A stretch of DNA of 64,000 nt. Origin: Pseudomonas sp. MYb118. GTDB taxonomy: Bacteria; Pseudomonadota; Gammaproteobacteria; Pseudomonadales; Pseudomonadaceae. Positions 22,686-41,292 of the stretch are shown one piece after another; the stretch's first letter is position 1; each line of letters starts with the position of its first letter. Location: contig NZ_JBFRXN010000002.1 in assembly GCF_040947875.1 (NCBI RefSeq), positions 1,674,001 through 1,738,000 on the forward strand, in the 5' to 3' direction. The notes below the pieces were generated by a model. The model had not been told where the DNA came from. It worked only from the letters and a program-made list of their open reading frames with translations, and searched no databases. Made by a program: the position numbers and the translations under genes.

Positions 22686-22688
22686 GTC

Positions 22689-23944: not shown

Positions 23945-23964
23945 TACGTTACAGTATAACAATA
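23945..23964. promoter_or_regulatory. Zur-like box between zigA and the gene at 24040
   Basis: The segment TACGTTACAGTATAACAATA contains GTTAcagTATAAC (23948-23960), an imperfect palindrome close to the gammaproteobacterial Zur consensus core (GTTATAnTATAAC). It is placed to control zigA and possibly the divergent gene. Confidence 0.65.
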
Positions 23965-24039
23965 CAATCAGACCAGCCCCCTCTTGTCGCAGAGGACAAA
24001 GGGCACGATGCTGAGCACGTCCGGACCGCGAGAAATCCC

Positions 24040-25586: not shown

Positions 25587-25624
25587 GGTGAAAAGCGCTC
25601 GTGAAAAAGACGTAGTCGAATTTG

Positions 25625-25642
25625 ATGTAATAACATAACATT
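25625..25642. promoter_or_regulatory. Zur-like box between amiA and folE2
   Basis: ATGTAATAACATAACATT has an ATGT..ACAT palindromic frame with a TAACATAACAT right arm and resembles the Zur consensus. It lies 39 bases from the amiA start and 18 bases from the folE2 start, so it can serve both divergent transcripts. Confidence 0.7.
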
Positions 25643-25659
25643 AGATTTCGATTACCACG

Positions 25660-26568
25660 ATGGACCTGCTGATGAATGCGCTGACTCTGCCGGATATCGC
25701 CGCGCAGGCTTCACGCCAAGCCCTGCCGCTTGAATGGGTGGGCATGTGTGGCATTGCCCTGCCCGTTTTGTTTGACGGTCAACGCCTGAGCGCGAAGGCC
25801 GACGCCGGGGTCAGCCTCGACGATGGCGAGGCGCGCGGCATTCACATGTCGCGGCTGTATCTCGCCCTGGAAATGCTTGAGCAGGACAACCTCACGCCAC
25901 GATTGATCCGGCAAGTCCTGCATCATTTCCTCGATTCTCATGAAGGCCTGTCGAACAACGCCTACCTGAAAATCGACGCGGATTTGCTGCTGAAAAGGCC
26001 GGCACTCATCAGCCCGTTATCGGGTTGGAAGCGTTATCCGGTGAGCATCGAAGCGCAGCTGAAAAACGCAATGTTCCACGTGGAACTAAAAATCGACGTG
26101 TCTTATTCCTCAACCTGTCCTTGTTCCGCCGCGTTGGCCCGGCAATTGATCCAGCAGCAATTCGTCGACGACTTCGCCAACCGCTCGCTGCAACACGCCG
26201 ATGTTCTCGCCTGGCTGGGCTCAACTAAGGGCATCGTGGCCACGCCGCATAGCCAACGCAGTCAGGCGCAATTACGGCTGACGCTGGATGACTTCGTCGA
26301 TGAGCTGCCGTTGCTCGCGGTGATCAACGACGCGGAAGCCGCCCTCGGCACCGCCGTGCAGACAGCGGTAAAGCGCGCCGACGAACAAGCCTTCGCCCTG
26401 GCCAACGGGCAGAACCTGATGTTCTGTGAAGACGCTGCGCGTCGCTTGAGCCTGGCCTTGCAGCGTTGCCCCGGGATCAACGCCTTGCAGGTTCGTGTGG
26501 TTCACGCCGAAAGCCTGCACGCCCACGACGCCGTCGCCGAAAGCCGATGGCGCCGGGAGGCCGAATGA
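25660..26568 (+). CDS. folE2: GTP cyclohydrolase FolE2 (type IB)
   Basis: The 302-residue enzyme makes dihydroneopterin triphosphate for folate and can use metals other than zinc, so it replaces zinc-dependent FolE during zinc limitation. Family marks are EWVGMCGIALPVLFDG near residue 25, SRLYLALEMLEQD, and the active-site region SYSSTCPCSAALARQL (about 148-163) with the catalytic Cys. The ATG at 25660 or that at 25672 (MNALTLPDIAAQAS) could be the start; neither has a strong ribosome-binding site. It is the first gene of a seven-gene operon running to 31798 and contains a parS site. Confidence 0.93.
   Translation: MDLLMNALTLPDIAAQASRQALPLEWVGMCGIALPVLFDGQRLSAKADAGVSLDDGEARGIHMSRLYLALEMLEQDNLTPRLIRQVLHHFLDSHEGLSNNAYLKIDADLLLKRPALISPLSGWKRYPVSIEAQLKNAMFHVELKIDVSYSSTCPCSAALARQLIQQQFVDDFANRSLQHADVLAWLGSTKGIVATPHSQRSQAQLRLTLDDFVDELPLLAVINDAEAALGTAVQTAVKRADEQAFALANGQNLMFCEDAARRLSLALQRCPGINALQVRVVHAESLHAHDAVAESRWRREAE
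26072..26087. other. parS-like ParB binding site inside folE2
   Basis: TGTTCCACGTGGAACT matches the pseudomonad parS palindrome TGTTCCACGTGGAACA at 15 of 16 positions. It lies within coding sequence, as do several parS sites of other pseudomonads. A second such site is at 38243. Confidence 0.8.
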
Positions 26569-27233
26569 TCCGTTGCGACGCATTGCGCTGGGGAGCGCCC
26601 GGGCAACCGCTGACGCCGGCGTTGAGTTTCGAACTGCCCAAGGGCAGCTTCACCGCCGTGATCGGCGCCAACGGCTCAGGCAAAAGCAGCCTGCTGAAAG
26701 TCATCGCCGGCTTGCAAAAACCGCTGGCTGGCAAGGTGGTGGTCGATGTTCCACGCAAAGGCGCACTGTCCTTTCTGGCCCAGCAACAACACCTCGATCG
26801 GCAATTTCCCATCAGTCTGCAAGAGCTGGTCGCCGCCGGTTTCTGGGGCAGCACACAATCGGCTGAGGTCCGACGGCAACGCCTGGCCAGCGCACTGGAA
26901 GCCTGGTGCCTGACCGGGTTGGAACATCGCCCCTTGATGGCGCTCTCCGGCGGAGAACTGCAACGCGCCCTGCTCGCTCGCCTGAGCCTGGCCGATGCAC
27001 CGCTGCTGCTTCTCGATGAGCCCCACGCCGCACTCGATGAGTTGGGGCAAGCGCTGTTGTGGCAACACCTGCATCAGTGGCACGCACAAGGTCGAACCCT
27101 GCTGGTGGTCTGTCATGACCTCGCCGCTGTGCGTCAGCACATCCCGCACACCCTGCTGATCAAAAGCAGCGGCTGCGTCCTGGGCGCCAGCACCGAGCTG
27201 ATTCACCAACAACCGCACACACAGGTGGCTTGA
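26565..27233 (+). CDS. Metal ABC transporter ATP-binding protein (ZnuC-like)
   Basis: The 222-residue ATPase has Walker A IGANGSGKSSLLKVIAGL (about 34-51), the Q-loop near FLAQQQHLDRQFPISLQELV, the signature LSGGELQRALLARL (about 126-139), Walker B LLLLDEP and the H-switch VVCHD. It energises uptake of zinc or manganese with the next two genes. Its ATG overlaps the folE2 stop (ATGA), so it is translationally coupled. This ABC module lies between folE2 and the gamma-carbonic anhydrase gene, where P. aeruginosa has none as far as I recall. Confidence 0.92.
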   Translation: MIRCDALRWGAPGQPLTPALSFELPKGSFTAVIGANGSGKSSLLKVIAGLQKPLAGKVVVDVPRKGALSFLAQQQHLDRQFPISLQELVAAGFWGSTQSAEVRRQRLASALEAWCLTGLEHRPLMALSGGELQRALLARLSLADAPLLLLDEPHAALDELGQALLWQHLHQWHAQGRTLLVVCHDLAAVRQHIPHTLLIKSSGCVLGASTELIHQQPHTQVA

Positions 27234-28099
27234 TGCTCACGGCCGTCCACCTCTGGCAGCCTTTCCAAGAGTTCGTGTTCATGCGCCGTGCGTTGCTCGG
27301 CGGCCTGGTGCTGGCATGCGCCACTGCACCGCTGGGCGTGTTCCTGATCCTGCGGCGCATGAGCCTGATCGGTGACGCCGTCGCCCACGGCATCCTGCCC
27401 GGTGCGGCATTGGGGTTCTGGTACGCGGGCTTGAGCCTGCCGGCATTGACCCTGGGCGGTCTCGGTGCCGGCCTGTGCATGGCTGGACTCGCCGCCTGGG
27501 TCACCCGCCGCACCGGCCTGCGCGAGGACGCCAGCCTGGCGGCGATCTACCCGATTTCCCTGGCCGCCGGTGTGCTGATTCTCGGCATCGCCGGGAAACG
27601 CCTGGACCTGCTGCACCTGCTGTTCGGCTCGGCCCTGGCGGTCGATGGCCCGACCCTGACCGGCATGTTGTGGATCTCGGGCTTGAGCCTGATCACCCTG
27701 GCGCTGATCTACAAGCCGCTGTTGCTGGACACCCTCGACCCGCTGTTCCTGCGAACCGTCAGCCGCCTGGGTCCCCTCGCCCACGGCGTGTTCCTGACCC
27801 TGGTGGTGCTCAATCTGGTGATCGGCTTTCAGGCAATCGGCGCGCTGATGGTCGTCGGCCTGATGATGCTGCCCGCCGCTGCCGCACGCTTCTGGAGCCG
27901 ACGCCTGCCGGTGTTGATGGCCATCGCCGCCCTGCTCGGCTGCCTCTCGGTGTGGCTCGGCCTGTTGCTGTCCTTCCATTTCTCACTGCCAAGCGGCCCG
28001 GCCATCGTGCTGATTGCCGGTGCCGGCTACTTGCTGTCCGTGGTGTTCGGGCCGGTGCACGGCCTGCTGCGCCGCCCGCCTTTGCTCACATCCCAATGA
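27233..28099 (+). CDS. Metal ABC transporter permease (ZnuB-like)
   Basis: The 288-residue inner-membrane protein has about eight to nine hydrophobic helices and family-9 ABC permease marks: PFQEFVFMRRALLGGLVLAC at the start, RRMSLIGDAVAHGILPGAAL (the segment coupling to the ATPase), and the NLVIGFQAIGALMVVGLMMLPAAAARF region. The ATG overlaps the stop of the ATPase gene (TGATG). Confidence 0.92.
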   Translation: MLTAVHLWQPFQEFVFMRRALLGGLVLACATAPLGVFLILRRMSLIGDAVAHGILPGAALGFWYAGLSLPALTLGGLGAGLCMAGLAAWVTRRTGLREDASLAAIYPISLAAGVLILGIAGKRLDLLHLLFGSALAVDGPTLTGMLWISGLSLITLALIYKPLLLDTLDPLFLRTVSRLGPLAHGVFLTLVVLNLVIGFQAIGALMVVGLMMLPAAAARFWSRRLPVLMAIAALLGCLSVWLGLLLSFHFSLPSGPAIVLIAGAGYLLSVVFGPVHGLLRRPPLLTSQ

Positions 28100-28110: not shown

Positions 28111-28986
28111 ATGCGCGCTTTACTCGTGTTGTTCAGTTTGATGCTCTCGATGTCGCTGTCCGCAGCGGAAAAACTCCAGGTGGTGACCAGCTTCAGCATC
28201 CTCGCCGACATGACCCATCAGGTCGGTGGCGAGCATATCCAGATCACCAACATGGTCGGCCCCGATGCTGACGCCCATACCTACGAGCCCACGCCGGACG
28301 ATGCCAAGGCCCTGCTCGGCGCCAAGCTGATCATCAAGAACGGCCTGGGTTTCGAACCCTGGCTGGACCGCCTGGTGACCAGCACCGACACACAGGCAAC
28401 CGTGATCAGCGCCAGTCACGGGGTCATCCCGCGCTCGCTGGATGAAGACGGCGAGACCATTCCCGACCCCCACGCCTGGCACAACCTAGCGAACGCCGAG
28501 CTGTACGTCGGCAACATCACCAAGGCGCTGATCGCCGCCGACCCGGCGAACAAAGCCGACTACGAACGCAACAGCCAGGCGTACCTGAAACAGATCTACG
28601 CACTGCTCGCCAAAGCCAAGGCCAAACTCGGCTCGCTGCCCGCGGGCAACCGCAAGATCGTCACCTCCCATGATGCATTCGGTTACCTCGGCCAGGCCTA
28701 CGGCATCGACTTCATGGCGCCGCAGGGGCTGTCCACCGAACGTGAACCCACCGCCGCGGAAGTCGCCGCGCTGATCACCCAGATCCGCCAGGCCAAGGTC
28801 AAGGCGGTGTTCATGGAGAACATCAAGGACGCACGCCTGCTCAAGCAGATTGCCGATGAAAGCGGCGCACACATCGGCGGCACCCTGTACTCCGACGCAC
28901 TCGCCGCAAGCGGCCCGGCCAGCACCTTCACCGGCCTGTTCGAATACAACCTCAACACCCTGTACAACGCGCTGGGCAAACCATGA
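28111..28986 (+). CDS. Metal ABC transporter substrate-binding protein (cluster A-I)
   Basis: The 291-residue periplasmic protein has a signal peptide (RALLVLFSLMLSMSLSAAE) and the cluster A-I fold. Candidate metal ligands are His56 (DADAHTYEP), His121 (DPHAWH), His187 (TSHDAF) and Asp262 (LYSDAL), the typical three-His/one-Asp set. It lacks the long histidine-rich loop of ZnuA. Operon position with zinc-sparing genes favours zinc, but manganese cannot be ruled out. Confidence 0.9.
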   Translation: MRALLVLFSLMLSMSLSAAEKLQVVTSFSILADMTHQVGGEHIQITNMVGPDADAHTYEPTPDDAKALLGAKLIIKNGLGFEPWLDRLVTSTDTQATVISASHGVIPRSLDEDGETIPDPHAWHNLANAELYVGNITKALIAADPANKADYERNSQAYLKQIYALLAKAKAKLGSLPAGNRKIVTSHDAFGYLGQAYGIDFMAPQGLSTEREPTAAEVAALITQIRQAKVKAVFMENIKDARLLKQIADESGAHIGGTLYSDALAASGPASTFTGLFEYNLNTLYNALGKP

Positions 28987-29543
28987 TCCGCAAGAACCCT
29001 TCAGGTGATCTGCCGGTGATTGCCGAGTCCGCGTACGTGGATAAAACCGCCATCATCTGCGGCAAAGTGGTGATCGGCGAAAACGTCTTCGTCGGCCCGT
29101 ATGCGGTGATTCGCGCCGACGAAGTGAACGCGGCTGCCGAGATGGATGCGATCACCATCGGCGCCAATTCGAACATCCAGGATGGCGTGGTAATCCACTC
29201 CAAATCCGGCGCGGCGGTGACCATCGGCGAGTTCAGTTCGATCGCCCACCGCTCCATCGTGCATGGCCCCTGCGTCGTGGGCGACCGGGTGTTCATCGGC
29301 TTCAACAGTGTGCTGTTCAACTGCGCCGTCGGTGACGGCTGCGTGGTGCGGCACAACTCGGTGGTCGATGGGCGCGATTTGCCCGAGGGTTTCTATGTGC
29401 CCTCCACCACGCGCATCGGGCCGAACACCGACCTGTCGAAATACCCACCGGTGAGCGTCAGCGCCTCGGAGTTTTCCGAGGACGTGGCGCGCACCAACGT
29501 CGATCTGGTACGGGGTTACAAGGCCCTGCAAAACGAGTTCTGA
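28983..29543 (+). CDS. Gamma-class carbonic anhydrase-like protein
   Basis: The 186-residue protein is a left-handed beta-helix built from hexapeptide repeats. The gamma-class active-site set is visible: Arg44 and Asp46 (VIRADE), Gln66 (NIQDG), and the metal-binding histidines His72 (VIHSK), His89 and His94 (SIAHRSIVHGP). Gamma enzymes can use Fe or Co as well as Zn, so under zinc starvation it could replace a zinc-dependent beta-class enzyme. Its ATG overlaps the previous stop (ATGA). The order folE2..gamma-CA-dihydroorotase is conserved in pseudomonads. Confidence 0.9.
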   Translation: MIRKNPSGDLPVIAESAYVDKTAIICGKVVIGENVFVGPYAVIRADEVNAAAEMDAITIGANSNIQDGVVIHSKSGAAVTIGEFSSIAHRSIVHGPCVVGDRVFIGFNSVLFNCAVGDGCVVRHNSVVDGRDLPEGFYVPSTTRIGPNTDLSKYPPVSVSASEFSEDVARTNVDLVRGYKALQNEF

Positions 29544-29546
29544 ACC

Positions 29547-30884
29547 ATGAGCAGCGTGCTGATCCGCAATGCGCGGCTGGTCAATGAAGGCTGTGAGTTC
29601 GATGGTGATCTGTTGGTCAGCCACGGGCGGATCGTCAAGATCGCCCGCAGCATCGAAGGTGAAAATGCCAGCGTGGAAATCGATGCCGACGGGCAGTGGC
29701 TTCTGCCTGGCATGATCGACGACCAAGTGCACTTTCGCGACCCTGGCGCGCCGGACAAAGGCAGCATCTACACCGAATCGCGGGCGGCGGTGGCGGGCGG
29801 CATCACCAGTTTCATGGACATGCCCAACACTCAACCCGCCACCTTGACCCTCGCCGCACTGGCCGACAAGAAACGCCGCGCCGCGATCAACTCCGTGGCC
29901 AACTACGGCTTTCACTTCGGCGTGAGCAACGACAACCTCGACACCATCGCCGCGCTCAATCCCAGCGAAGTGGCCGGGGTGAAAGTGTTCATGGGCGCCT
30001 CCACCGGCAACATGCTGGTGGACGACCCCAAGGTGCTCGAAAGGTTGTTCGCCGAGGTGCCGACAATCCTGTTGGCCCACTGCGAACACACGCCGAGCAT
30101 CGAAGCCAACCTGGCCGAACACCGCGCCCTGTTCGGCGAGGCCATCAGCGCCGCCGACCATCCTTTGATTCGCGATGCCCAGGCCTGCTTTCACTCGTCC
30201 TCCATGGCGGTGAACCTGGCCAGGCGTCACGGCACACGACTGCACGTGCTGCACCTGACCACGGCGCGCGAACTGGCGCTGTTCGAAGATAAACCGCTGG
30301 CGCATAAACGCATTACCGCCGAAGTGTGCCTGCACCATTTGCTGTTCGACGATCGCGATTACGCGGCGCTCGGCAACCAGATCAAGTGCAACCCGGCGAT
30401 CAAGACCCAGGCCGATCGCGACGCACTGCGCCAAGCCTTGTCGAGTCATCGACTGGATGTGATCGGCAGCGATCACGCGCCTCATACATGGGCTGAAAAA
30501 CAACGCGACTACCAACACGCGCCATCTGGCCTACCATTGGTGCAACACGCCCTCCCCGCGTTACTGGAACTGGTGGCGGATAACTTGCTCCCGATCACCA
30601 CGCTCGTGGCCAAGACCAGCCACAGTGTCGCGGACCTGTTTGCGATTCCCGACCGTGGCTACCTGCGTGAGGGGTATTGGGCGGACCTGGTATTGATCAA
30701 GCCCGAACCGGGCGGCGTGGCCGTCGGCCCGGAGCCGATTCTTTCCCAGTGTGGCTGGACGCCATTTGCCCGGCACCGGTTTCGCCACAGCGTCAGCACG
30801 ACGCTGGTGTCCGGCCAGATCGCATGGCACGACAAATGTCTTAATGACAACTGCCAGGGTTTACCACTACGGTTTATGCGCTAG
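29547..30884 (+). CDS. pyrQ: Second dihydroorotase, zinc-starvation paralogue
   Basis: The 445-residue amidohydrolase forms dihydroorotate in pyrimidine synthesis. It contains PGMIDDQVHFRDPG (about 53-66), KVFMGASTGNM, the metal ligands in AHCEH and HVLHLTT, and SDHAPHTWAEK (about 311-321). In the HxH motif the first His is Gln (DQVHF), a variant seen in one class I subgroup, which may alter metal demand. It starts three bases after the gamma-carbonic anhydrase. Zur-controlled paralogues of this kind are known in P. aeruginosa. Confidence 0.9.
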   Translation: MSSVLIRNARLVNEGCEFDGDLLVSHGRIVKIARSIEGENASVEIDADGQWLLPGMIDDQVHFRDPGAPDKGSIYTESRAAVAGGITSFMDMPNTQPATLTLAALADKKRRAAINSVANYGFHFGVSNDNLDTIAALNPSEVAGVKVFMGASTGNMLVDDPKVLERLFAEVPTILLAHCEHTPSIEANLAEHRALFGEAISAADHPLIRDAQACFHSSSMAVNLARRHGTRLHVLHLTTARELALFEDKPLAHKRITAEVCLHHLLFDDRDYAALGNQIKCNPAIKTQADRDALRQALSSHRLDVIGSDHAPHTWAEKQRDYQHAPSGLPLVQHALPALLELVADNLLPITTLVAKTSHSVADLFAIPDRGYLREGYWADLVLIKPEPGGVAVGPEPILSQCGWTPFARHRFRHSVSTTLVSGQIAWHDKCLNDNCQGLPLRFMR

Positions 30885-30901: not shown

Positions 30902-31798
30902 ATGATCCACATCACCCTCAGCGATGGCTCATTGCTTGAATACGATCAGCCGTTGTCGGTGTACGAACTCGCCGCAAGCATCAGTGCCGGCCTGGCCAAG
31001 GCCGCAGTGGCGGGTCGGGTCGACGGGGTGCTGGTGGATTGCGAGTTCATGCTCAAGGCCGACGCGCGCGTCAGCATCGTCACGCCGCGCGAGCCCGATG
31101 GGCTGGAGATCCTGCGACGCTCCTGTGTGCTGATGCTGGCAATGGCCGTTAAACAGCTTTACCCCAAGGCGCAGTTGCTCAATGGATCAGTGCTCGGTGA
31201 CGGCTTCTTCCACGAGTTCGCTTTTGAGCGACCGCTGAACCTGGTCGATCTGGCGGGCATTGAAGCGCGCATGAAAACGCTGGCGGCGACCAACCATTCG
31301 ATTCGTCGGCGTGAGCCGTCAATCCCCATCGGCGAGCTGATGCCCTACGTACTCGGAGATTTCGAGTGTCTGTCGGTGGGCCCACATGTCCCGGCAACAA
31401 GGGTGTTGCAAGCGTTCGCCCTCGACCACATCAGCGGTACCGCGTCACAACGCATCTACGGCAGTTGCTGGTCGAGCCAGGAAGAACTGGAAAACTGGCG
31501 GGCGCCGCCGCACGTGATGATTGTGAGCATGGATGATCGCCAATCCGACTACGCCCAATCGGTCACCGAAGCCCTGCGACGCCACGGCGTACGCGCCCGC
31601 GCCGACCTGCGTAACGAGAAGATTCACCACAAGATCCGCGAGCACAGCCAACTGGTGCCCTACCTGGTAGTAGTCGGCGAGAAGGAAAAGGAAGGTGGAT
31701 TCGTCAGCTTGCGCAGCCAGAACGGCGAGGATTTCGGCACGATGGCGATTGAAGCGGTGTGTGCGTGGTTGCGGCCGGTTGAGCCTGCAGTGGTTTGA
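30902..31798 (+). CDS. Threonyl-tRNA-synthetase-like protein lacking the catalytic domain
   Basis: The 298-residue protein aligns with both ends of ThrRS (normally ~640 residues). It has a TGS domain (1-62), an editing-like N2 domain (63-198; ILRRSCVLMLAMAVKQLYP and RIYGSCWSSQEELENW), and then, directly, the anticodon-binding domain (201-292; ADLRNEKIHHKIREHS). The entire aminoacylation core, with motifs 1-3 and the zinc ligands, is absent. In the editing site the E. coli positions His73, His77 and Cys182 are Arg73, Leu77 and Ser158 here; only the GPH histidine (162) remains. It therefore should neither charge nor edit tRNA-Thr in the usual way, but may bind tRNA or RNA. It is last in the folE2 operon (18-base gap), so zinc starvation should induce it. 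Confidence 0.88.
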   Translation: MIHITLSDGSLLEYDQPLSVYELAASISAGLAKAAVAGRVDGVLVDCEFMLKADARVSIVTPREPDGLEILRRSCVLMLAMAVKQLYPKAQLLNGSVLGDGFFHEFAFERPLNLVDLAGIEARMKTLAATNHSIRRREPSIPIGELMPYVLGDFECLSVGPHVPATRVLQAFALDHISGTASQRIYGSCWSSQEELENWRAPPHVMIVSMDDRQSDYAQSVTEALRRHGVRARADLRNEKIHHKIREHSQLVPYLVVVGEKEKEGGFVSLRSQNGEDFGTMAIEAVCAWLRPVEPAVV

Positions 31799-32360: not shown

Positions 32361-32490
32361 CGAGTCACTCCTGATAGTAGTGGCCGTTAGACGTCAGCCA
32401 CGGGCTTCGGTTCAGGGGCCAATTAATTAGCGACATTCTGCACGGAACATGGTCTGTTAGGCATTGAATCTTCAGGAGCAAGGTCGCCCC

Positions 32491-33930
32491 ATGGATTACT
32501 TCGGACCGCATGTTTTCGGTTATCTGATTGCGCTGCTGCATTCACTGGGGCTGATTGCCGCCATCCATGCCGTCCTGACCGTCAGGACCGCCCAGGGCTC
32601 GATTGCCTGGGCCCTGTCGTTGCTGTTCATGCCTTACCTCACGCTCATTCCATATCTGGTGTTCGGCCGCAGCACCTTCGATGGCTACATCAAGGCACGG
32701 CGCCAGGCCAACGAAGAAATGCGCAAGGCCATTGCCGAATTGAACTGGCGCCCCTGGGTCGAGGAAGCACTCGCCGCCCGGGCATCCAGCGCCTACGACA
32801 CACTGCGGGCCATGCCCAAACTGGGGCGCATGCCGTGCCTGGCCAACAATGAGGTGCGCCTGTTGATCAATGGGCCCGCCACCTTCGAAGCGATTTTCGA
32901 GGCCATCAGCCAAGCCAGGGAAGCCGTGCTGATCCAGTTTTTCATCATCCACGACGACCGCCTGGGTCAACGCCTGCAAACGCTGTTGCTGAAAAAAGCA
33001 GCGGAAGGCGTCGCCGTGTATCTGCTGTACGACCGCATCGGCAGCCACTCTCTGCCCCACAGTTACGTACAGCCATTGCGCGATGCCGGTGTCGAGGTCA
33101 AAGCCTTTGCGACACGCAGCGGCTGGCTCAACCGCTTTCAGGTCAATTTCCGCAATCACCGCAAGATCGTGGTGGTCGATGGGGAGTTGGGTTTCGTGGG
33201 CGGTCACAACGTCGGCGACGAGTACCTGGGCGAGAAGCCACCCCTGGCCCCGTGGCGCGATACCCACGTCGGTGTTCGTGGCCCTGTGGTGGCCTGCATG
33301 CAGGAGTCCTTCGCCGAAGACTGGTTCTGGGCCGCACGCTCATTGCCGCCGTTGATCCTGCCGGACGTGTACCCCGACGACGGCGTGCTCTGTCAGTTGC
33401 TCGCCAGTGGCCCGGCGGATCCTTATGAAACCTGCTCGCTGTTCTTCGTCGAAGCCATCCATGCGGCAACGGAACGGGTGTGGATCACCAGCCCCTATTT
33501 CATTCCTGACGAAGCTGTTTTCGCGGCGTTACGCCTGGCCGTCCTGCGAGGGGTGGACGTGCGGATTCTGCTGCCGTCGCGCCCCGATCACCGGATCGTC
33601 TACGCCGCCTCCAGCCTGTACGCGTTCGAAGCGGTGCGCGCGGGCGTGCGGGTGTTCCGCTATGAACCCGGTTTTTTGCATCAGAAGGTGGTGTTGATCG
33701 ACCGCGAAATCAGCGCCATCGGCAGCGCCAATCTGGACAACCGCTCGTTCCGGCTGAATTTTGAAGCGATGCTGCTAACCGTCGACAGTGCGTTTGCCGC
33801 AGAGGTGGAACGAATGCTCAACGACGACTTTGCCCAGGCCCACGAAGTCGCCAAAGAAGAAAGCCGGGAGACCCACCGCCTGCAACAGATCGGCATGCGG
33901 ATCGCCCGGCTCATTTCGCCGATCCTTTAA
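32491..33930 (+). CDS. cls: Cardiolipin synthase
   Basis: The 479-residue inner-membrane phospholipase-D-family enzyme condenses two phosphatidylglycerols to cardiolipin. Two amino-terminal membrane helices (about 5-60) precede two HKD motifs: [19 protein letters not shown] (about 224-242) and [23 protein letters not shown] (about 397-419). The ATG at 32491 gives the usual [12 protein letters not shown] start, with AGGAGC upstream. Its end overlaps that of the convergent cfa gene by four bases. Confidence 0.95.
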
Positions 33931-35114
33931 GGCGTGTAGATGTCGTCGCGGGTCCAGGGCAGTTCGTGGCTGCCGTCAGGGTGGGCTTTAACCGCCAGGA
34001 TCTGGTGCAGGTTGATCCAGCCCCGGGCGAACGCATAGGCGCATCCCGCCAGGTACAACCGCCAGATACGCAGCGCCTGTTCCGGCACCAGTTTGCTGGC
34101 GGTTTCCAGATTGTCTTCCAGGCGTTCGCTCCAGTGATCCAGGGTGCGCGCGTAGTGCAGGCGCAGACTCTCGACATCGACGATTTCCAGACCGGCCTCG
34201 CTGATCTCGGCGGAGATCATCGACAGGTGCGGCAGCTCACCGTTGGGGAACACGTACTTCTCGATGAAGTCACCCGCACCACGCCCCACCGGACGACCGT
34301 CGGTGTGCTTGGCGGTGATGCCATGGTTCATCACCAGGCCACCCTCCTTCACCGCGCCGAACAGGGTTTTGCAGTACTCGGCCAGGTTCGCATGGCCGAC
34401 ATGCTCGAACATGCCAACGCTGACGACCTTGTCGAACCGCCCGTCCTGAGGCAGATCGCGGTAGTCGAGCAGTTGCAGTTCAACCTGATCTTCCAGGCCT
34501 TCAGCGACCACCCGCTCACGGGCCAGCGCCAGTTGTTCCTTGCTCAGCGTGATGCCGAACACCTTTACACCGAACTCCCGCGCCGCATACCGTGACAACC
34601 CGCCCCAACCGCAACCGACGTCCAACAGGTACTCGCCTGGCTGCAAACGCAGCTTGCGGCACAGGTGGCGGAATTTGGCTTGCTGGGCTTGTTCCAGGGT
34701 TTCGCTACCGGTCTCGAAGTAGGCGCAGGAATACGCCATGTCGCTGTCGAGCCACAGCTGATAGAACTCGTTGGAAAGGTCGTAGTGATAGGAAATCGCC
34801 TTGGCGTCGGTTTCCTTGTCGTGCGAGGTGCGTACAGGGTTGCTGTCGTCATCCTCGCCGAGCAGCGCCTGGCTCAGGTCATCGCAGACGCGAATCACGT
34901 CGCTCATCGAGCCTTCCAGCTCCAGCTTGCCTTCGACGAAGGCTGCGCCGAGCGCATCCAGGCTGGGGTGAGTGAACTGGGTCACCACTTGCGGATCCTT
35001 GACCACAATCGTGACGCTGGGGGTCGGTCCCAGATTGAACTCGTGGCCGTCCCATAGCCTCAGGCGTAACGGTAACTGCAGATTCTGTAAGGCCGGTGGA
35101 AGTTGCGCGAGCAT
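33927..35114 (-). CDS. cfa: Cyclopropane-fatty-acyl-phospholipid synthase
   Basis: The 395-residue SAM-dependent enzyme adds a methylene across double bonds of membrane lipids, typically in stationary phase. It has [23 protein letters not shown] (about 111-133), the SAM-binding [15 protein letters not shown] (about 163-177), [17 protein letters not shown], and the late [13 protein letters not shown]. Length is in the normal range. Being convergent with cardiolipin synthase, it places two phospholipid-modifying genes together. Confidence 0.93.
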
Positions 35115-35300: not shown

Positions 35301-37211
35301 TCAGGCGTCGTCCTGCACCTTGAGCAGCGGTTCCTGAAACCGCAGCAGACGCCCGGCGTTGCCCAGCACCAGCAAAGTGCTGAGGTTATGCAGCACGGCA
35401 GCGATCATCGCACCCGCCGCGCCGAGCCAGCCGAACGCCGCGAACACGACGATCGCCAGGGTCCAGCCCAGGCCGATGATCACGTTGACCTGCAGGGTAT
35501 GGCGGCATTGGCGACTCAGGCGCACGCAGGTGCCGAGGCGGCGCAAGTCGCTGCCAATCAACACGATGTCGGCCGACGCCAGGGCGATGTCCGCCCCGCC
35601 CGCCCCCATGGCCACCCCCACCACCCCGGCCTTGAGGGCCAGCGAATCGTTGATGCCGTCGCCGACCACCATGGGTCGAAAGCCACTGTCGATTTCCTGG
35701 AGTACCCGATTGAGTTTGTCTTCGGGCAAGGCCTGGGCCTGGACGTCGTGCAAGCCAACGTCGTGGGCCAGGGTCTGCGCCACGCTCTGGCGATCGCCGG
35801 TGAGCAACAACTGGCGGCCCAAACCAAGCTCGCGCAACTCGCCCAGGGCAAAACGCGCCTCGGGTTTGACGCTGTCGGCCAGCAACAACCAGGCGAGAAA
35901 TCTGCCGTCCAGGGCGAGCCCGGCAATCGGACCATCGTGTTCAGGCACGGTGCTGGTGACGATCCCCAATTGGCTGAACAACTCGGGGCGACCCAACGCT
36001 GCTTCGCCCTGCTCGGTCATGGCCACCACACCCAGACCCTGGCGTTCGTGAATGTCCTCAAGCTGCAGGCAATCCTCCTGACTGACCAGGCCGGCGAGTG
36101 CGCGGCTGACCGGGTGGCTGCTGGCCGAGCCGAGGCTGGCCGCGAGCCTCAGCACGTGGCTGCGATCCTCCAGCGGGCTGTCGATCGACTGCAGGCGCAG
36201 CGTGCCGAAGGTCAGGGTCCCGGTCTTGTCGACCACCAGTGAGGTGAGGTCGGCCAGCTCTTCGAGAAACGCCGAGCTGCGAATCAGGATGCCGTGGCGC
36301 GCCGCCACCGCTACGCCGGCAATGGCCGTGGCCGGCGCCGACAACACCAGCGCACACGGGCACGCCGCCACCAACACCGCGAGCATCGCCTGGGCATCGT
36401 TGGTGACAAACCAGGTTACGGCGGCCAGCAGCAACACCAGCACCATGTAGCTGCCGGCGTAGCGTTCAAGCAGCCGGGTAATCGGCGGCTTGGAGCGCTC
36501 GGCACTCTGCATCAGCGCGATGACCTTGCCCAGGGTCGATTCGCTGCCCGTGCGCGTCACTTCAATGCGCAGCAGGCCATCGAGGTTGATCGCCCCGCCA
36601 AACACCGATTGGCCGACGCCCGCCTCCACCGGCACCGACTCACCGGTGATTGATGCCGTATCGAGGCTGGCCTGGCCGGACAGTACTCGGCCATCGGCCG
36701 GCACGCGATCACCGGCGCGAACCTCCACGCAATCACCGGACTTGAGCGTGCCGTTATCCACTTCGACGATTGAGCCATCAGCCTGCACCCGGCGTGCCTG
36801 GCTGCGGGTGAGTTTGCCCAACGCATGGATGGCTTCCTGGGAGCCGATCACGCTGCGCTCTTCCAGCACGTGGCCGAAGATCATGATGATGGGCAACAAC
36901 GCGGCGGTCAGCAGATCACCGGTCGCCCAGGCGCCGAGCATGGCCAGGGCAATCAACTGATCGGTAATGCCATGCAGGCTCGGGTAGCGCAGGCTGAACC
37001 ACGCCGAGCGCATCACCGGCACGGCCACCAGGATCGACGCGACGCCGAGCAGCAATTGACTGACGCCGAGCTGCTGCGGTGAGACCCAGCGCCAGATCAA
37101 TCCGAGCGCCAGCAGCCCCAGGGCGAGCATGGCCAGGGTCAGTTGACGGGCGGCGCTGCATTGCTCGGCTGAAGACAGCAGGCTCGGTGCCGCGGCGGTA
37201 GAAGCAGTCAT
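35301..37211 (-). CDS. P1B-type heavy-metal transporting ATPase without an amino-terminal metal-binding domain
   Basis: The 636-residue protein carries TGES (189-192), the transmembrane metal motif AACPCALVLSAP (CPC at 284-286), the phosphorylation site DKTGT (328-332), the P1B marker SSHPVSRAL, and VGDGINDSLAL. There is no HMA domain or CxxC at the amino terminus. In the last membrane helix, HNLSTLLVLGNAGRLL replaces the Asp-containing motif of ZntA-type zinc exporters, so the metal is uncertain. It is the last gene of a four-gene operon of overlapping reading frames with three SPFH proteins behind a Zur-like box, which favours zinc, and possibly import rather than export. Confidence 0.9.
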   Translation of the reverse strand: MTASTAAAPSLLSSAEQCSAARQLTLAMLALGLLALGLIWRWVSPQQLGVSQLLLGVASILVAVPVMRSAWFSLRYPSLHGITDQLIALAMLGAWATGDLLTAALLPIIMIFGHVLEERSVIGSQEAIHALGKLTRSQARRVQADGSIVEVDNGTLKSGDCVEVRAGDRVPADGRVLSGQASLDTASITGESVPVEAGVGQSVFGGAINLDGLLRIEVTRTGSESTLGKVIALMQSAERSKPPITRLLERYAGSYMVLVLLLAAVTWFVTNDAQAMLAVLVAACPCALVLSAPATAIAGVAVAARHGILIRSSAFLEELADLTSLVVDKTGTLTFGTLRLQSIDSPLEDRSHVLRLAASLGSASSHPVSRALAGLVSQEDCLQLEDIHERQGLGVVAMTEQGEAALGRPELFSQLGIVTSTVPEHDGPIAGLALDGRFLAWLLLADSVKPEARFALGELRELGLGRQLLLTGDRQSVAQTLAHDVGLHDVQAQALPEDKLNRVLQEIDSGFRPMVVGDGINDSLALKAGVVGVAMGAGGADIALASADIVLIGSDLRRLGTCVRLSRQCRHTLQVNVIIGLGWTLAIVVFAAFGWLGAAGAMIAAVLHNLSTLLVLGNAGRLLRFQEPLLKVQDDA

Positions 37212-38266
37212 TGTGCAGCTCCCTGAAGGATCAGGCGGGAATCGTCTTTCGGATTGACCGTTGTCACCGAGCCGGCCTGCCCGAGGATTTTCGGCATGCG
37301 TTCGCGGTAGATGCGCAATAGCATCTGCGGGTCGGTGCCTTGCTGTTGCGCCTTGGTCAGGCCCAGCACCGTGGCGGTGTCGGCGGAGGCCTTGGCCAGT
37401 CGTTCGCTCGCCTGGGCATGGGCGACCTGCAAGGTGCGATCAGCTTGTTCGTTGGCGGTCTGGTTGAGTTTCTCAGCGTCGGTGCGTGCATTGGCCACCG
37501 CTTTGTCAGCCTGCTGGCTGGCCGTCAGGACCGCATTGAAGGCGTTGACCGCCGGATCCGGCAGGCTCGATTGCACATCCACCCGCGCCACTTCGATACC
37601 CAGCCCCTGCCCTGTCGCGGCCAGTTCAGCCAGGCGCTGATTGATGCCTTGCACCAGATCGCCGCGCAGTCGCTCACGGCGTTCAGCGGCCTGACTGTCG
37701 GCCCCGATCAGCTCGGGTCGTGCGACCAGGATGGTGTCCAGGTCCCGCGCTGCCGTCAGGGCAACCGAACTGCGAGTTACCAGGCGATCCAGCGCTGGCA
37801 GCACATGTTCACCTTGAAGTACGAAGGCGTATGGTTCGGTGACCTTGTAGAACACCCGCACATCCAGCTGCACGACGCCGGCATCACCGGTGAGCAAATA
37901 GCCAGAGCCAGCCAACGCATCACTGATCGGCGAGGCGAAGGTCGCAGACCTGTCGGCCTGTAATGCAGCATCACTGCGCAACAGATTGGTGACCCGCCGC
38001 TCGATCACTCGATCCGCCGCCGGCAACAGAATCACCTGCTCGAAGGGCCGAGGCCACGCCAGCAACAGGCCGGCATTCTGAATGCGATCCAGCGCACCGA
38101 AGTGCAACACCACCGCGCGATTCTGCGGATCAATTTGCCGCACATTGGAAAATGCCCAGGCCAATGCCGCCAGCACGGTCACCGCATACAACGCGAGAAA
38201 GGCCAAGCGCCCGGCCTGAATCCACGGGCTACTCAACTCATGTGTTCCACGTGGAACCAAACTCAT
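37208..38266 (-). CDS. HflC-like SPFH protein
   Basis: The 352-residue protein has an amino-terminal membrane helix (about 19-40), an SPFH/Band-7 domain (RQIDPQNRAVVLHFGALDR to LGIEVARVDVQSSLPDPAVN), and an alanine-rich coiled coil (AVANARTDAEKLNQTANEQADRT). It ends with IYRERMPKILGQAGSVTTVNP, like HflC. HflK-HflC normally form a large cage around the FtsH protease in the inner membrane. This set is a paralogue away from hflX, associated instead with a metal ATPase. Its start overlaps the previous stop and its stop overlaps the ATPase start (ATGA at both). It contains a parS site near its 5' end. Confidence 0.88.
   Translation of the reverse strand: MSLVPRGTHELSSPWIQAGRLAFLALYAVTVLAALAWAFSNVRQIDPQNRAVVLHFGALDRIQNAGLLLAWPRPFEQVILLPAADRVIERRVTNLLRSDAALQADRSATFASPISDALAGSGYLLTGDAGVVQLDVRVFYKVTEPYAFVLQGEHVLPALDRLVTRSSVALTAARDLDTILVARPELIGADSQAAERRERLRGDLVQGINQRLAELAATGQGLGIEVARVDVQSSLPDPAVNAFNAVLTASQQADKAVANARTDAEKLNQTANEQADRTLQVAHAQASERLAKASADTATVLGLTKAQQQGTDPQMLLRIYRERMPKILGQAGSVTTVNPKDDSRLILQGAAQ
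38243..38258. other. parS-like ParB binding site near the start of the HflC-like gene
   Basis: TGTTCCACGTGGAACC matches the pseudomonad parS palindrome at 15 of 16 positions, the mismatch being at the last base. It lies 12.2 kb from the folE2 site. Confidence 0.8.
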
Positions 38267-39288
38267 GGCTGCGACCCAGGTTTGTTGTCGAGACTCGTGG
38301 GGCCGTCCACCAACACCCGGAAGGGCGCCGCGTCGGTGCGCAATACCAGCTTCGTTCCCGGGCCGACGATAGTGCCGAGGGTGTCCAGCGAACGCAGCAG
38401 GTTGTACAACTGCGGCGAGCCGGCGTAGGCGCGCCCGTAGATCTGCGCCGCTTCGACCCGGGACTGCGCCTCGATCTCGGCCGCTTTCACGGTGGCATCT
38501 GCCTGGACGATCCGCGCATCCCTTTCGGCAGCAGAACGGATTTGCGCCGCTTCGCGCTTGCCGATGGCCGTGCGTTCGGTGGCGATTGTTTCACGCTCGG
38601 CGCGCATGCGATCGACCGTGGCGGTCAGCGTCACTGACGGCAAGGTCAAACGTTCGATACCCACTTGCAGCACGCGCACCCCATAGGTGGCCAACAATTG
38701 CTGATCAATTTGCTGGCGCAGTTGCGCTTCGAAATCGGCGATGCGCACCTGGCTGGCATCGGTGTTGACCAGGTTAGCCAGATCGAAACTGCTGGCGGTG
38801 GTTTCCAGCGCGGAACCGACAAAGGTACGAATCTGCCGCGCGGCTTCGTCCGGCTGGTTCTGCACCGCGCGCATGAAACGCTGCACATTGTCCGGATCCC
38901 CCTGGACCTGCCACGCCACATAAGCCTGGACGATGATGCGCAAGCCATCGCGTGTACCGACGTCCTGCAACCCGCTGGAGGTGGTGCGCAACCGCAGATC
39001 TACAGGGATCGCCGCCTCGAACGGCGCCGGCCAGCGCCAGCTCAAGCCGGGGGCCAGCAGCACCCGCGACGGATTGCCAAAACGGGTGATCACCGTCGCC
39101 TCGCCGGAACGCACCTGCACCAGGCTCGCCGCCGCGATGGCGAAGGCCACCAGCAGCGCCGCCCAGCCCATGCGTCGCCAGGCAAAGGGGCCAGCCTCTT
39201 GCGGCTCGCCGTGATGGTGATGATGGTGGTGCCCGTGGTGATGCCCGCCATGACCGTGATCATTATCGTGAGTGTGTGAGTGGCTCAA
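38263..39288 (-). CDS. HflK-like SPFH protein with a histidine-rich amino-terminal tail
   Basis: The 341-residue protein starts with a tail holding 15 His within its first 26 residues (a run of seven at 20-26), then a membrane helix (about 42-62). An SPFH domain (RSGEATVITRFGNPSRVL to VLQVGIERLTLPSVTLT) and a coiled coil with ALA/GLU repeats follow. The tail precedes the single helix and should be cytoplasmic by the HflK model, where it could bind zinc or nickel. The start is TTG at 39288, overlapping the previous stop as TTGA, with AGGAGC about seven bases ahead. It resembles the metal-buffering tails of zinc transporters and is not a feature of ordinary HflK. Confidence 0.88.
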   Translation of the reverse strand: MSHSHTHDNDHGHGGHHHGHHHHHHHGEPQEAGPFAWRRMGWAALLVAFAIAAASLVQVRSGEATVITRFGNPSRVLLAPGLSWRWPAPFEAAIPVDLRLRTTSSGLQDVGTRDGLRIIVQAYVAWQVQGDPDNVQRFMRAVQNQPDEAARQIRTFVGSALETTASSFDLANLVNTDASQVRIADFEAQLRQQIDQQLLATYGVRVLQVGIERLTLPSVTLTATVDRMRAERETIATERTAIGKREAAQIRSAAERDARIVQADATVKAAEIEAQSRVEAAQIYGRAYAGSPQLYNLLRSLDTLGTIVGPGTKLVLRTDAAPFRVLVDGPTSLDNKPGSQP

Positions 39289-41243
39289 TTGGCAGCTCCT
39301 GGTTGAGCGGTTTTAGGCGAGGGCGTGGGGTCGGCTGGCGAGGTGAACGTGCGCAGGTCGATGGTCGGCGCGTTGCCGCTACCGCCCAGGCGATGATCGA
39401 TGACCAGCAGCTTCGCGCTGGCCAGGCCTTGGGACAGCTGGCTCAGATACTGCTCCAGCACGAACGCCTGACCGGCGCTGGCATAGGCTTTTTGCTCGGC
39501 GGAGAATTTCAGGTTCGCCGCCTGCGCCGCTGCATGGGTTTCCCTTGCGCTGGCGCTGGCCTGGTCGCTGGCGATGCTGGCCCGCAACTGCGCCTGGTTG
39601 GTCGCTTCCGCCGCCGCTCCGCGCTCGCGTGAAATCAGCGCCTGCGCGGCGATCTGCGCCGCTTGCACACCGTGATAGGCATTGGCCGCACCCGCCGGTG
39701 GGTGAATGGCCTCCACTACCGTGGCGAGAATTTCCACGCCACTGTCGAGCGATGTCAGGTCCGCTTGCACGGCCCGGCCAATGTCTTCGGCGAGCCCTAC
39801 CCTGTCCTCTCCCAGCAAACCGTCGAGGGTGCGCGAGGCAAAATCGTGCACCAGGATCCGGCTCGCGGTGCTGCGGATCAGTGTCGGCACATCGGCACTG
39901 TTGTACGTGGCGGCCAATGCCGCTTGATCGGTCAAACCGATGCGGTAGACGAACCGCACGTCCATGTTGACGATCTGGAAGCTCTGTTTGTCGGCACGAC
40001 TGCTGGCGATGACCTGGGATTTGTCGTTGACGTGACTGGCATCCCACAAGCGGTTGGCCACGTCCGGTGCCGGGCCTTCTGCCGGCTGCGCGGCAACCGG
40101 CGCCGCTACTTCACCGACACTGGTGGCCAGCTCGTGCACCACACCATTCTCGACACTCAGCACGCGGCCCAACGGCCAGGGCAGACCGACATGCAGGCCC
40201 GGGCCGAACACTGCCACCGGCTTGCCGAAACGTTCGTAGATGCCCCGTTCCTGCAAGGCGATTTCATGAACACCGGTCAGCGCCCAACCGACCACGGCCA
40301 CCACCGCCAGCACCGGTAGCAAGGCGCGGCGCATGTAGCTGAATGCCCAGATTTGTCGCAGGTCGATGCCGAAGCGGTTGTGCAATTCGTGCTGCAACGC
40401 CAGCAAGGGTTGCGGCGGCCAGCGCAACAGATCAGCAGCGAAACTTCTGGCCAACAGCGGCGGCTCCAGCTGTTCGCGGCGCGGGGTGAACAAGGACAGC
40501 AAGGCGCGCAGCAACAGTTCGGCGGCGACCAACCCCGGCAGCAGGCCGATCAACACGGCCAGGCGTGCCGGCCACACCGTTTCGCTGCTGGCGAACAACA
40601 GGCACAGCGCGCTTAGCACCAGGCTGACGATAGCGACGCGCGCCAGTTGCGCCAATGCACCGGCCTCAGGCCACTGGGCAGCCGATTGCTGGGCCAATTG
40701 ACGCTCCAGCACCAGCAGGCCGAACGCCAGCAACAGCGACACTGCTGCGCCGACATTCGCTGAAAAGCCCAATGCCGCAGCGGGCAGGGACAGGTTCCAG
40801 ATCTGCTCGATACTCAGCAGTGCCAACAGGGCCCAACCAGCCAGCCACAACGTCGGCGCGCCAATGTTGATCAATAGTTGTTTGCTGCGTTGGCTGATGC
40901 GCTCCAGCAGTCGATCATACCAACCCACTGCGGGCTCAACGGCCTCGACGTCCGCCACTGACTCCAAAGGGTTCATCGCCCTGGCGCGCCACTTCGCCAC
41001 CCACCCCGCCGATTGCAGGCCCGCCATCAGCACCAGTAGGCTGGCGCACTGATTGACCAGCAGCGCCGGCCACAACGATTGCGGCGCAAACAGCGCAGTG
41101 AAAAAAGCCAGCACCAGCCCCACGCCCACCAGCACGCCAAGGCCGATCACCCACCAGCCCAGGCGCCGCCTATGGAAGGCCGCTTGCTGGAAGCGTGGCA
41201 ACCCGGCGATCGCGGCGCCGTCACTCTCAAGATCAACTTGCAT
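39285..41243 (-). CDS. Large HflK-like SPFH protein with multi-helix membrane domain
   Basis: The 652-residue protein has about seven hydrophobic segments in its first 250 residues, then another helix (about 310-330, LLPVLAVVAVVGWALTGVHE). An SPFH domain follows (IALQERGIYERFGKPVAVFGPGLHVGLPWP to VEILATVVEAIHPP), then a long Ala/Gln-rich coiled coil ending in a Pro/Ala tail. Ordinary HflK (~400 residues) has only the single helix; the extra membrane domain is a distinguishing mark of this operon. It is the first gene of the operon and starts 31 bases from a Zur-like palindrome. Confidence 0.88.
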   Translation of the reverse strand: MQVDLESDGAAIAGLPRFQQAAFHRRRLGWWVIGLGVLVGVGLVLAFFTALFAPQSLWPALLVNQCASLLVLMAGLQSAGWVAKWRARAMNPLESVADVEAVEPAVGWYDRLLERISQRSKQLLINIGAPTLWLAGWALLALLSIEQIWNLSLPAAALGFSANVGAAVSLLLAFGLLVLERQLAQQSAAQWPEAGALAQLARVAIVSLVLSALCLLFASSETVWPARLAVLIGLLPGLVAAELLLRALLSLFTPRREQLEPPLLARSFAADLLRWPPQPLLALQHELHNRFGIDLRQIWAFSYMRRALLPVLAVVAVVGWALTGVHEIALQERGIYERFGKPVAVFGPGLHVGLPWPLGRVLSVENGVVHELATSVGEVAAPVAAQPAEGPAPDVANRLWDASHVNDKSQVIASSRADKQSFQIVNMDVRFVYRIGLTDQAALAATYNSADVPTLIRSTASRILVHDFASRTLDGLLGEDRVGLAEDIGRAVQADLTSLDSGVEILATVVEAIHPPAGAANAYHGVQAAQIAAQALISRERGAAAEATNQAQLRASIASDQASASARETHAAAQAANLKFSAEQKAYASAGQAFVLEQYLSQLSQGLASAKLLVIDHRLGGSGNAPTIDLRTFTSPADPTPSPKTAQPGAAN

Positions 41244-41273
41244 AATACCCCGGCATCTTTGCCCGAATCACAT

Positions 41274-41292
41274 TTCGTTACGATATAACGAA
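41274..41292. promoter_or_regulatory. Zur-like box upstream of the SPFH / P-type ATPase operon
   Basis: TTCGTTACGATATAACGAA has perfect seven-base arms (TTCGTTA/TAACGAA) around a five-base centre. Its core GTTAcgaTATAAC matches that of the zigA site at 23948 at 11 of 13 positions. It lies 31-49 bases upstream of the first gene. Confidence 0.65.

What the first reader, a model, noticed from the sequence alone, without database searches (positions are those of the whole stretch)
35301..41292. Zur-box-controlled SPFH cage plus P1B ATPase operon with a histidine-rich tail
Seen: four minus-strand genes overlap by four bases each (ATGA or TTGA). They encode a 652-residue HflK-like protein with an extra multi-helix domain, an HflK-like protein with 15 His in its first 26 residues, an HflC-like protein and a P1B ATPase lacking amino-terminal metal-binding domains. 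A near-perfect Zur-like palindrome (TTCGTTACGATATAACGAA) lies just upstream. Known: HflK-HflC form large membrane cages around FtsH. Inference: a dedicated SPFH cage could enclose the ATPase, with the His-rich tail collecting zinc and feeding an importer, or could control its turnover by protease. Similar operons may exist in other pseudomonads, but I know of no mechanistic description.
Basis: partly seen in the sequence, partly recalled or inferred. Interest (0 to 1): 0.88.

Follow-up and report, generated by a model that had tools for sequence, protein, structure and literature searches.

The report
Zinc-starvation pump with dedicated scaffold proteins
This looks like the Pseudomonas hmtA operon, a zinc-starvation gene set in which an unusual metal pump was found only together with the same three membrane-scaffold proteins; the operon and its zinc control were already known, but what the scaffold does for the pump has not been explained.

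Summary
Four minus-strand genes overlap by 4 bp, 30 bp downstream of a Zur-type box. They match the P. aeruginosa PA2439-PA2435 (hmtA) cluster, whose Zur binding and induction under zinc depletion are published: the operon is not new.

Added here: (1) the ATPase and the His-rich SPFH protein occur in the same genomes in three samples (28 of 198; 10 of 72,556 plasmids, two conjugative; 11 at phylum scale); all four genes are present at all 116 loci read. (2) His-rich tails on P3 and on the ATPase vary between lineages; each of 40 cassettes read has at least one. (3) The ATPase keeps CPC, WT and HNx[S/G]T in 44 of 44 and lacks the exporter Lys/Asp pair. (4) The large SPFH protein's six-helix domain resembles CDF zinc transporters in a predicted structure, without sequence support.

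Best reading: a zinc importer held in its own SPFH shell. Partnership is likely; enclosure is inferred and untested.

The parts
41274..41292 (.). Zur-type operator, 7-bp inverted arms TTCGTTA/TAACGAA, core GTTATATCGTAAC on the minus strand, 30 bp upstream of the first start codon
   Evidence: a GTTA...TAAC core 40-89 bp upstream in 78 of 80 Pseudomonas loci; most conserved upstream 13-mer, 0.972
39285..41243 (-). P4: 652-aa SPFH protein with an amino-terminal six-helix membrane domain, a seventh helix and a distant HflK-like SPFH part
   Evidence: hflK 58.3 bits, cut-off 159.4; 7 hydrophobic segments; AF2 model and fold matches
40476..41192 (-). P4 residues 18-256: six-helix domain with a CDF (YiiP/ZnT)-like fold in the predicted model; no sequence support
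39468..40274 (-). P4 residues 324-592: SPFH domain and long helix, with an insertion and His residues not shared with the genome's own HflK-like protein (H370, H404, H514, H524); low model confidence
38263..39288 (-). P3: 341-aa HflC-like SPFH protein, TTG start, one transmembrane helix
   Evidence: (hflC 92.5 bits, cut-off 134.4)
39211..39288 (-). P3 residues 1-26: His-rich tail (15 His), predicted cytosolic
37208..38266 (-). P2: 352-aa HflK-like SPFH protein, one transmembrane helix
   Evidence: (hflK 88.1 bits, cut-off 159.4)
35301..37211 (-). P1: 636-aa P1B-type ATPase without amino-terminal HMA domains (HmtA type)
36354..36362 (-). P1 residues 284-286: CPC motif of the transport site
   Evidence: 44 of 44 cassettes
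35376..35390 (-). P1 residues 608-612: HNLST, with His where ZntA (4umv) has its last-helix Asp
   Evidence: HN and T in 44 of 44, S in 42 and G in 2; alignment to 4umv

Best explanation
The operon is the hmtA-type zinc-starvation operon. Zur with zinc represses it; when zinc is scarce, three SPFH proteins and a P1B ATPase are made together. Most likely P4, P3 and P2 assemble into a hetero-oligomeric SPFH ring or dome in the inner membrane, with SPFH domains in the periplasm and short amino termini in the cytosol, and this shell holds the ATPase as its dedicated client in place of (or beside) FtsH. The ATPase moves Zn (possibly also Cu) from periplasm to cytosol through a site that differs from that of zinc exporters. 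The His-rich tails around the cytosolic face bind the ion as it leaves, which limits back-flow and free zinc. Shown here: gene content, operator sequence and its conservation, co-occurrence, tails, ATPase motifs, hydrophobic segments. Published for P. aeruginosa: Zur binding and induction. Inferred: Zur action in this genome, shell assembly, ATPase inside it, tail side and function, and import direction (the last rests on the HmtA literature).
For: Orthology: same gene types as P. aeruginosa PA2439/2438/2437/2435 (HflK family, HflC, HflC family, HmtA), with P. aeruginosa-named proteins matching P4 at 61% (P0276) and P3 at 84% over 86% of its length (P0072). Zinc control: published EMSA of the PA2439 promoter, 5.6-14.4-fold induction in a znuA mutant, proteins higher under Zn depletion; box conserved here; two Fur-family genes in the genome, the second a possible zur. 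Context: zinc-starvation-type genes at 21.3-28.1 kb of the window, with another Zur-type site before ZigA. Partnership: same 28 of 198 genomes for P3 and ATPase; same 10 of 72,556 plasmids for P3, P1 and P4, adjacent by their coordinates in all ten, with a gap to the next listed rows (ATPase 56.8-74.5% against at most 37.1%; P3 66.6-70.6% against at most 29.5%); same 11 genomes at phylum scale; all four genes at 116 of 116 loci read, not all independent. Protein distances correlate at r 0.93-0.97. Tails. Exporter residues replaced. Precedents: stomatin dome enclosing aquaporin-1 and UT-B (PMC12407830, abstract); PacL scaffolds clustering P-type ATPases (PMC13043812, abstract and section list).
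Against: hmtA mRNA stayed low and did not fall on zinc addition in one study (PMC8531726), and a review says Zur does not bind hmtA (PMC10393844), though the cited paper reports a shift of the PA2439 promoter. That review says import by HmtA needs confirmation. No interaction was tested. Co-occurrence may reflect linkage of a mobile cassette alone. One plasmid cassette (Klebsiella, L142) lacks the P3 tail. The six plasmid cassettes fetched show no Zur-type box by my score, nor do the Rhizobiaceae locus L151 and L139. Deleting three SPFH genes of PA14, probably this trio, gave slight effects (about 20% less biofilm, attenuation in Galleria); metal limitation was not among the conditions in the passages seen. 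Both AF2 models are weak (mean pLDDT 64.6 and 64.2). The topology rests on a simple hydropathy and charge script.
Confidence: 0.58

Rival explanations
1. The SPFH trio is a quality-control shell that brings FtsH to, or keeps it from, the ATPase, so that the pump is stable in starvation and destroyed when zinc returns. The link to zinc transport is through turnover only.
For: HflK/HflC are FtsH modulators and surround FtsH (chains of 7vhp, 7wi3, 9cz2 among the matches; PMC12048511 abstract). No protease gene lies in the operon or is annotated beside the cassette in four plasmid loci, so it could borrow the housekeeping one. PacL2 is said to stabilise CtpG in M. tuberculosis (PMC13043812 section heading and abstract).
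Against: The genome has an adjacent HflK/HflC-like pair and two further Band_7 proteins of its own; the cassette proteins score below the HflK/HflC cut-offs and share 21-27% with that pair. It does not explain the His tails or their presence on the ATPase itself.
Confidence: 0.2
2. The ATPase exports: it loads zinc or copper from the cytosol into a periplasmic chamber under the SPFH dome to metallate periplasmic enzymes during starvation, with the cytosolic His tails as the donor.
For: P1B ATPases usually export. The tails lie where an exporter would need them. Paraburkholderia has the cassette beside a copper chaperone and a metal ABC transporter; an AmiC-like amidase gene, a zinc-enzyme family by recall, lies in the window.
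Against: HmtA overproduction raises cell Zn and Cu according to the review text; Zur control fits uptake; the exporter Lys and Asp are replaced.
Confidence: 0.15
3. The SPFH genes have no direct partnership with the ATPase; they are a general membrane-stress module kept in the operon because the cassette travels as one piece.
For: The cassette is mobile (two conjugative plasmids among ten), which alone favours intact linkage; SPFH mutants of P. aeruginosa had slight phenotypes.
Against: No P3 without the ATPase, or the reverse, at the thresholds used in 198 family genomes, 72,556 plasmids or the phylum samples, down to 53% pairwise ATPase identity; over such divergence a useless linkage should break.
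Confidence: 0.1

Closest known systems
Pseudomonas aeruginosa hmtA cluster PA2434-PA2439 (PMC4542158, PMC8531726, PMC11761036; passages seen)
   Same: Same gene types; Zur-bound promoter; induced under zinc limitation
   Different: In 9 of 13 loci of genus g280 (taken as Pseudomonas sensu stricto, see full report) 658-693 bp lie between the P2 stop and the first matched ATPase codon, with a small open frame (compare PA2436), and all 13 have a His tail on the ATPase; the window has neither
HflK/HflC-FtsH cage of E. coli
   Same: SPFH fold, one-helix anchor in P2 and P3, different subunits
   Different: Three subunits, one with six extra helices; below family cut-offs; encoded with a P-type ATPase, not a protease
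Zn exporter ZntA (4umv; P1B-2 by recall)
   Same: CPC motif, P-type core; P1 passes the TIGR01525 and TIGR01512 cut-offs
   Different: No HMA domain; ZntA last-helix Asp is His, TM5 Lys is Thr
P1B ATPase 7qbz (P1B-4 by recall)
   Same: His at the start of the last-helix motif (HEGST against HNLST)
   Different: CPC instead of the SPC of 7qbz; HNx[S/G]T in all 44
PacL effluxosomes of M. tuberculosis (PMC13043812, abstract)
   Same: Small membrane scaffold with a metal-binding tail that clusters P-type ATPases
   Different: Resistance to metal excess; PacL proteins are small and, by recall, not SPFH proteins
Stomatin dome around aquaporin-1 and UT-B (PMC12407830, abstract)
   Same: SPFH protein enclosing a transporter
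   Different: Eukaryotic; passive channels

Membership tests
hmtA operon (P. aeruginosa type) | HflK-like, HflC-like, SPFH and P1B ATPase genes in one operon | tested here: met
   cluster listed in PMC4542158 Table 2 (passage)
hmtA operon (P. aeruginosa type) | Zur-controlled promoter | tested here: inconclusive
   conserved Zur-type box; core not enriched genome-wide; binding not assayed for this genome
hmtA operon (P. aeruginosa type) | Sequence identity to PAO1 HmtA itself | not tested
HflK / HflC (NCBIfam equivalogs) | Score over the curated cut-off | tested here: not met
   P2 88.1/159.4, P3 92.5/134.4, P4 58.3/159.4 bits
SPFH / Band_7 | Pfam PF01145 over cut-off | tested here: met
   63.6, 108.2, 70.5 bits against 23.6
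P1B-2 zinc exporters (ZntA/CadA) | TM5 Lys and last-helix Asp of the zinc site (roles recalled, not from a call) | tested here: not met
   Thr and His in all 44; the genome's CadA-like L163 keeps Lys and Asp
P1B ATPase | CPx motif, DKTGT, heavy-metal P-type profile | tested here: met
   TIGR01525 521.1 bits over 346.25; CPC 44 of 44; DKTGT in the loci printed
CDF transporters (P4 six-helix domain) | Six-helix CDF fold | tested here: inconclusive
CDF transporters (P4 six-helix domain) | Sequence profile (Pfam scan; HHalign to seven CDF proteins) | tested here: not met
   No CDF family in 53 members or 4 plasmid P4 proteins; HHalign probability 1.3% against 2.1% for an unrelated control
SPFH cage enclosing a client | Oligomeric dome with the ATPase inside | not testable with these tools
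   single-chain prediction only

The most novel reading that the evidence does not exclude
The cassette encodes a zinc 'importosome': an SPFH dome whose largest subunit carries a CDF-like six-helix domain, which encloses a P1B importer of a separate subfamily, with interchangeable cytosolic His tails taking over the zinc. It would be the first SPFH shell that I know of dedicated to a primary metal pump, spread as a mobile unit among alpha-, beta- and gammaproteobacteria.
Probability: 0.15. Interest if true: 0.87.

Novelty: new variant of a known kind. Interest (0 to 1): 0.6.

Why it matters
HmtA is an unusual claim of a P-type ATPase that imports a transition metal, and a review calls for its confirmation. 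If it works only inside its own SPFH assembly, tests of HmtA alone may have missed needed partners. The recent survey of P. aeruginosa SPFH proteins (PMC13086221) deleted what is probably the matching trio (paFlo5-7; I infer this from their being three SPFH genes in one operon, not from sequence); its main text holds no occurrence of hmtA, Zur, P-type or heavy metal. The system also offers a bacterial case in which an SPFH client can be guessed from genetics, so the old question of what SPFH shells enclose becomes directly testable.

Tried and rejected
P4-P3 gene fusion: automatic ORF ends suggested a shared frame in L118-L124; reading the junction showed a TAA stop and a TTG start after AAGGAG, so it was dropped.

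CDF homology of P4 by sequence: Pfam at E up to 10, all 53 members at E up to 5, four plasmid P4 proteins, HHalign: nothing. Kept only as a fold resemblance.

Zur box in distant cassettes: for the six plasmid loci and the Rhizobiaceae locus L151, 47-194 of 200 shuffles reach the observed score; L139 115 of 200. Three Rhizobium-type loci (L145, L146, L151) share a different palindrome, GATACGTAATAACGTAT. I could not match it to a rhizobial Zur box from the passages read. Two of 80 Pseudomonas loci fail the core pattern; L041 has a near miss, L016 none.

cfa and cls as operon partners (lipid genes near an SPFH set): matches present in 80 of 80 loci; in the family sample cfa in 13 of 27, none in the 13 g280 loci or L139, none in the nine others, within the 2.3-5 kb held downstream. 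Treated as a neighbourhood effect.

Distribution: P4 (E up to 1e-20) in 1 of 274 and P3 (E up to 1e-40) in 1 of 369 class-level genomes, the window's own each time, although the phylum sample then gave two more genomes of the same class; P3 in 1 of 199 genomes of the family of G653, the query's own. The system is sparse. The phylum ATPase search also gave G865 at 35% identity; I count it as an ordinary P1B ATPase because it falls with the non-cassette group; its motif was not read. Seven ATPases in five plasmid loci with the next-nearest relatives show no HNxST in the carboxyl ends printed, and no SPFH gene is annotated in those stretches. SPFH11a/b of the 2009 survey are a pair always adjacent (PMC2636767 passages); I could not tell whether they belong here.

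Literature on novelty: searches (open-licence PMC only; nine of ten searches). None of the listings, abstracts or passages I saw describes a mechanism for the SPFH proteins with HmtA; most subscription papers are not in that library, and Lewinson 2009 was not held.
Full report
What is there. One search confirms four minus-strand genes, P4 (39285-41243, 652 aa), P3 (38263-39288, 341 aa, TTG start), P2 (37208-38266, 352 aa) and P1 (35301-37211, 636 aa), each overlapping the next by 4 bp. P4, P3 and P2 carry the Band_7/SPFH domain over its cut-off; P1 is a P-type ATPase without a reported HMA domain. By NCBIfam, P3 is nearest HflC and P2 and P4 nearest HflK, all below the curated cut-offs. P3 begins with 15 His in 26 residues. 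P4 has seven hydrophobic segments, P3 and P2 one each; with an N-in start this puts all three SPFH domains in the periplasm and the P3 tail in the cytosol. This is a simple hydropathy and charge reading, not an experiment.

Operator. The 19-bp site has perfect 7-bp arms. Within 3 mismatches it is unique in the window. The core GTTATANNNTAAC occurs three times in the 6.58-Mb genome, no more than the reversed control, and the stricter GTTATANTATAAC with one mismatch finds only the ZigA place, so the pattern alone proves nothing. But that other copy lies 50 bp before a gene that passes the ZigA cut-off (684.2 against 600 bits; 22689-23897). Of 80 Pseudomonas loci, 78 keep a GTTA...TAAC core 40-89 bp upstream, and with the window included it is the most conserved 13-mer of 193 upstream positions, closely followed by another block (0.972 and 0.968). 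With a 12-position score, 15 of 27 further family loci reach 10 or more and 12 reach 9. Of those 12, 11 belong to genus g280, which I take as Pseudomonas sensu stricto because its member G481 has a contig of the same length (284,396) and the same P3 amino terminus as P0079, named P. nitroreducens. [quoted passage not shown] aeruginosa (PMC4542158 passages). Of nine other loci only L150 and L152 have a good site. The genome has two Fur-family genes, one of which may be zur.

Known operon. Gene types match PA2439-PA2435. PMC4542158 (passages) lists PA2437 and PA2438 as HflC types, PA2439 as HflK family and PA2435 as HmtA, up 5.6-14.4-fold in a znuA mutant. PMC8531726 (passages) reports a zinc-dependent Zur shift of the PA2439 promoter but no zinc repression of hmtA mRNA. 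PMC11761036 (passages) finds the proteins higher under zinc depletion, in its words significantly so for PA2438 and PA2439; PA2436 was not detected. PMC10393844 (section 6 read; other passages) says import by HmtA still needs confirmation and that Zur does not bind hmtA. PMC8456098 was seen in passages. Lewinson 2009 was not held and is cited through these papers. So operon, regulation and pump are known; a role for the SPFH proteins is not described in anything I saw.

Linkage. In one family-level sample P3 (E up to 1e-40) was found in 28 of 198 genomes, and the ATPase (E up to 1e-120) in 28 of 198, the same 28 handles, own genome included. Among 72,556 plasmid records, P3, P1 and P4 each find the same 10: Rhizobium 7, Burkholderia 1, Paraburkholderia 1, Klebsiella 1, two of the ten typed conjugative; the coordinates put the three genes side by side in all ten. 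The next ATPases have at most 37.1% identity among the 20 further rows listed (560 records not listed), the next P3 relatives at most 29.5% among the six further rows listed (52 not listed, all under 60%). At phylum scale P3 is in 11 of 398 genomes and the ATPase at 68% or more in 11 of 358, the same 11 (a twelfth match has 35%). The samples overlap. All loci read have all four genes: 80 of 80, 27 of 27, 6 of 6 plasmids (six of the ten were fetched) and 3 of 3. Some of the 80 and the 27 come from the same assembly (L073 and L116, equal contig length), so these are not all independent. Pairwise distances of the four proteins over 44 cassettes (window, 7 of the 80, all 27, all 9) correlate at 0.93-0.97.

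Tails. I read amino termini of 40 cassettes (4 of the 80, all 27, all 9). P3 has at least 7 His before its helix in 39 of 40; the exception is the Klebsiella plasmid (1 His). The ATPase has at least 4 His in 20 of 40 (13 of 13 g280 loci, L139, Klebsiella, Paraburkholderia and the four Rhizobium-type loci L143, L145, L146, L151) and 0-2 in the others; the window has none (start codons chosen by rule, nine ATPase starts read only). Each of the 40 has one or both tails. Sequence and length vary while the composition stays, which fits selection for metal binding on the cytosolic face. Of 82 listed P3 relatives printed, 14 show no His in the stretch examined; 13 of these are 266-303 aa, mostly starting at a downstream ATG, and one (P0096, 397 aa) has none in its first 40 residues.

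Pump. In 44 of 44 cassettes P1 has CPC, W583-T584 in TM5 and HN at 608-609 followed by x, S (42) or G (2), and T. Aligned to ZntA (4umv), T584 faces the TM5 Lys and H608 the last-helix Asp; the importance of these two residues is recalled. The genome's CadA-like ATPase keeps Lys and Asp (L163; label mine) and its two other P1B-like ATPases lack the HN motif (L162, L165). None of 7 ATPases in five plasmid loci with the next-nearest relatives has HNxST. P1 thus looks like a subfamily apart from P1B-2, sharing the His with 7qbz.

Mechanism. The strict pairing, shared operator and tails argue for a pump with its own SPFH assembly. That SPFH assemblies surround membrane proteins is reported for FtsH and, in a preprint, for aquaporin-1 and UT-B (abstracts); that a metal-binding scaffold can organise P-type ATPases is reported for PacL (abstract). 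I therefore prefer enclosure with cytosolic zinc capture (0.58 for the partnership and direction as a whole; enclosure itself nearer 0.4), over protease control, export, or passive linkage.

Verdict. Ordinary in that it is a known Zur-regulated operon; unusual in that the strict SPFH partnership, the alternating tails and the separate ATPase motifs have no explanation in the papers seen, and can be tested in laboratory strains.

Noticed in passing
window 21337-28099: Cluster of zinc-starvation-type genes: CobW-like, ZigA (over cut-off), AmiC-like amidase (below cut-off), FolE2 (over cut-off), AztA/AztB-like zinc ABC transporter (below cut-offs).
   Followed up: partly
window 23948-23960: Another Zur-type site (GTTATACTGTAAC on the minus strand) between ZigA and a divergent small protein with a signal-peptide-like start and no Pfam match at E up to 1e-5.
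   Followed up: partly
window 28983-30884: Hexapeptide-repeat protein related to gamma carbonic anhydrase and an amidohydrolase, possibly spare copies of zinc enzymes.
   Followed up: no
window 30902-31798: 298-aa protein with the TGS and anticodon-binding parts of threonyl-tRNA synthetase but no match to the catalytic core.
   Followed up: no
window 32464-35114: Phospholipase-D-type (cardiolipin synthase-like) and cyclopropane fatty acid synthase-like genes just downstream; matches to both in 80 of 80 loci.
   Followed up: partly
L126-L134, between P2 and ATPase: 658-693 bp between the P2 stop and the first matched ATPase codon, with a small open frame that starts like a signal peptide in those printed; compare PA2436 of P. 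aeruginosa.
   Followed up: no
L145, L146, L151 upstream of P4: Shared palindrome GATACGTAATAACGTAT, unlike the Zur box, perhaps another regulator's site.
   Followed up: no
L144 1-5232: Paraburkholderia cassette near a metal ABC transporter, a DUF2946 protein and a PCu(A)C copper chaperone, hinting at copper as well as zinc.
   Followed up: no
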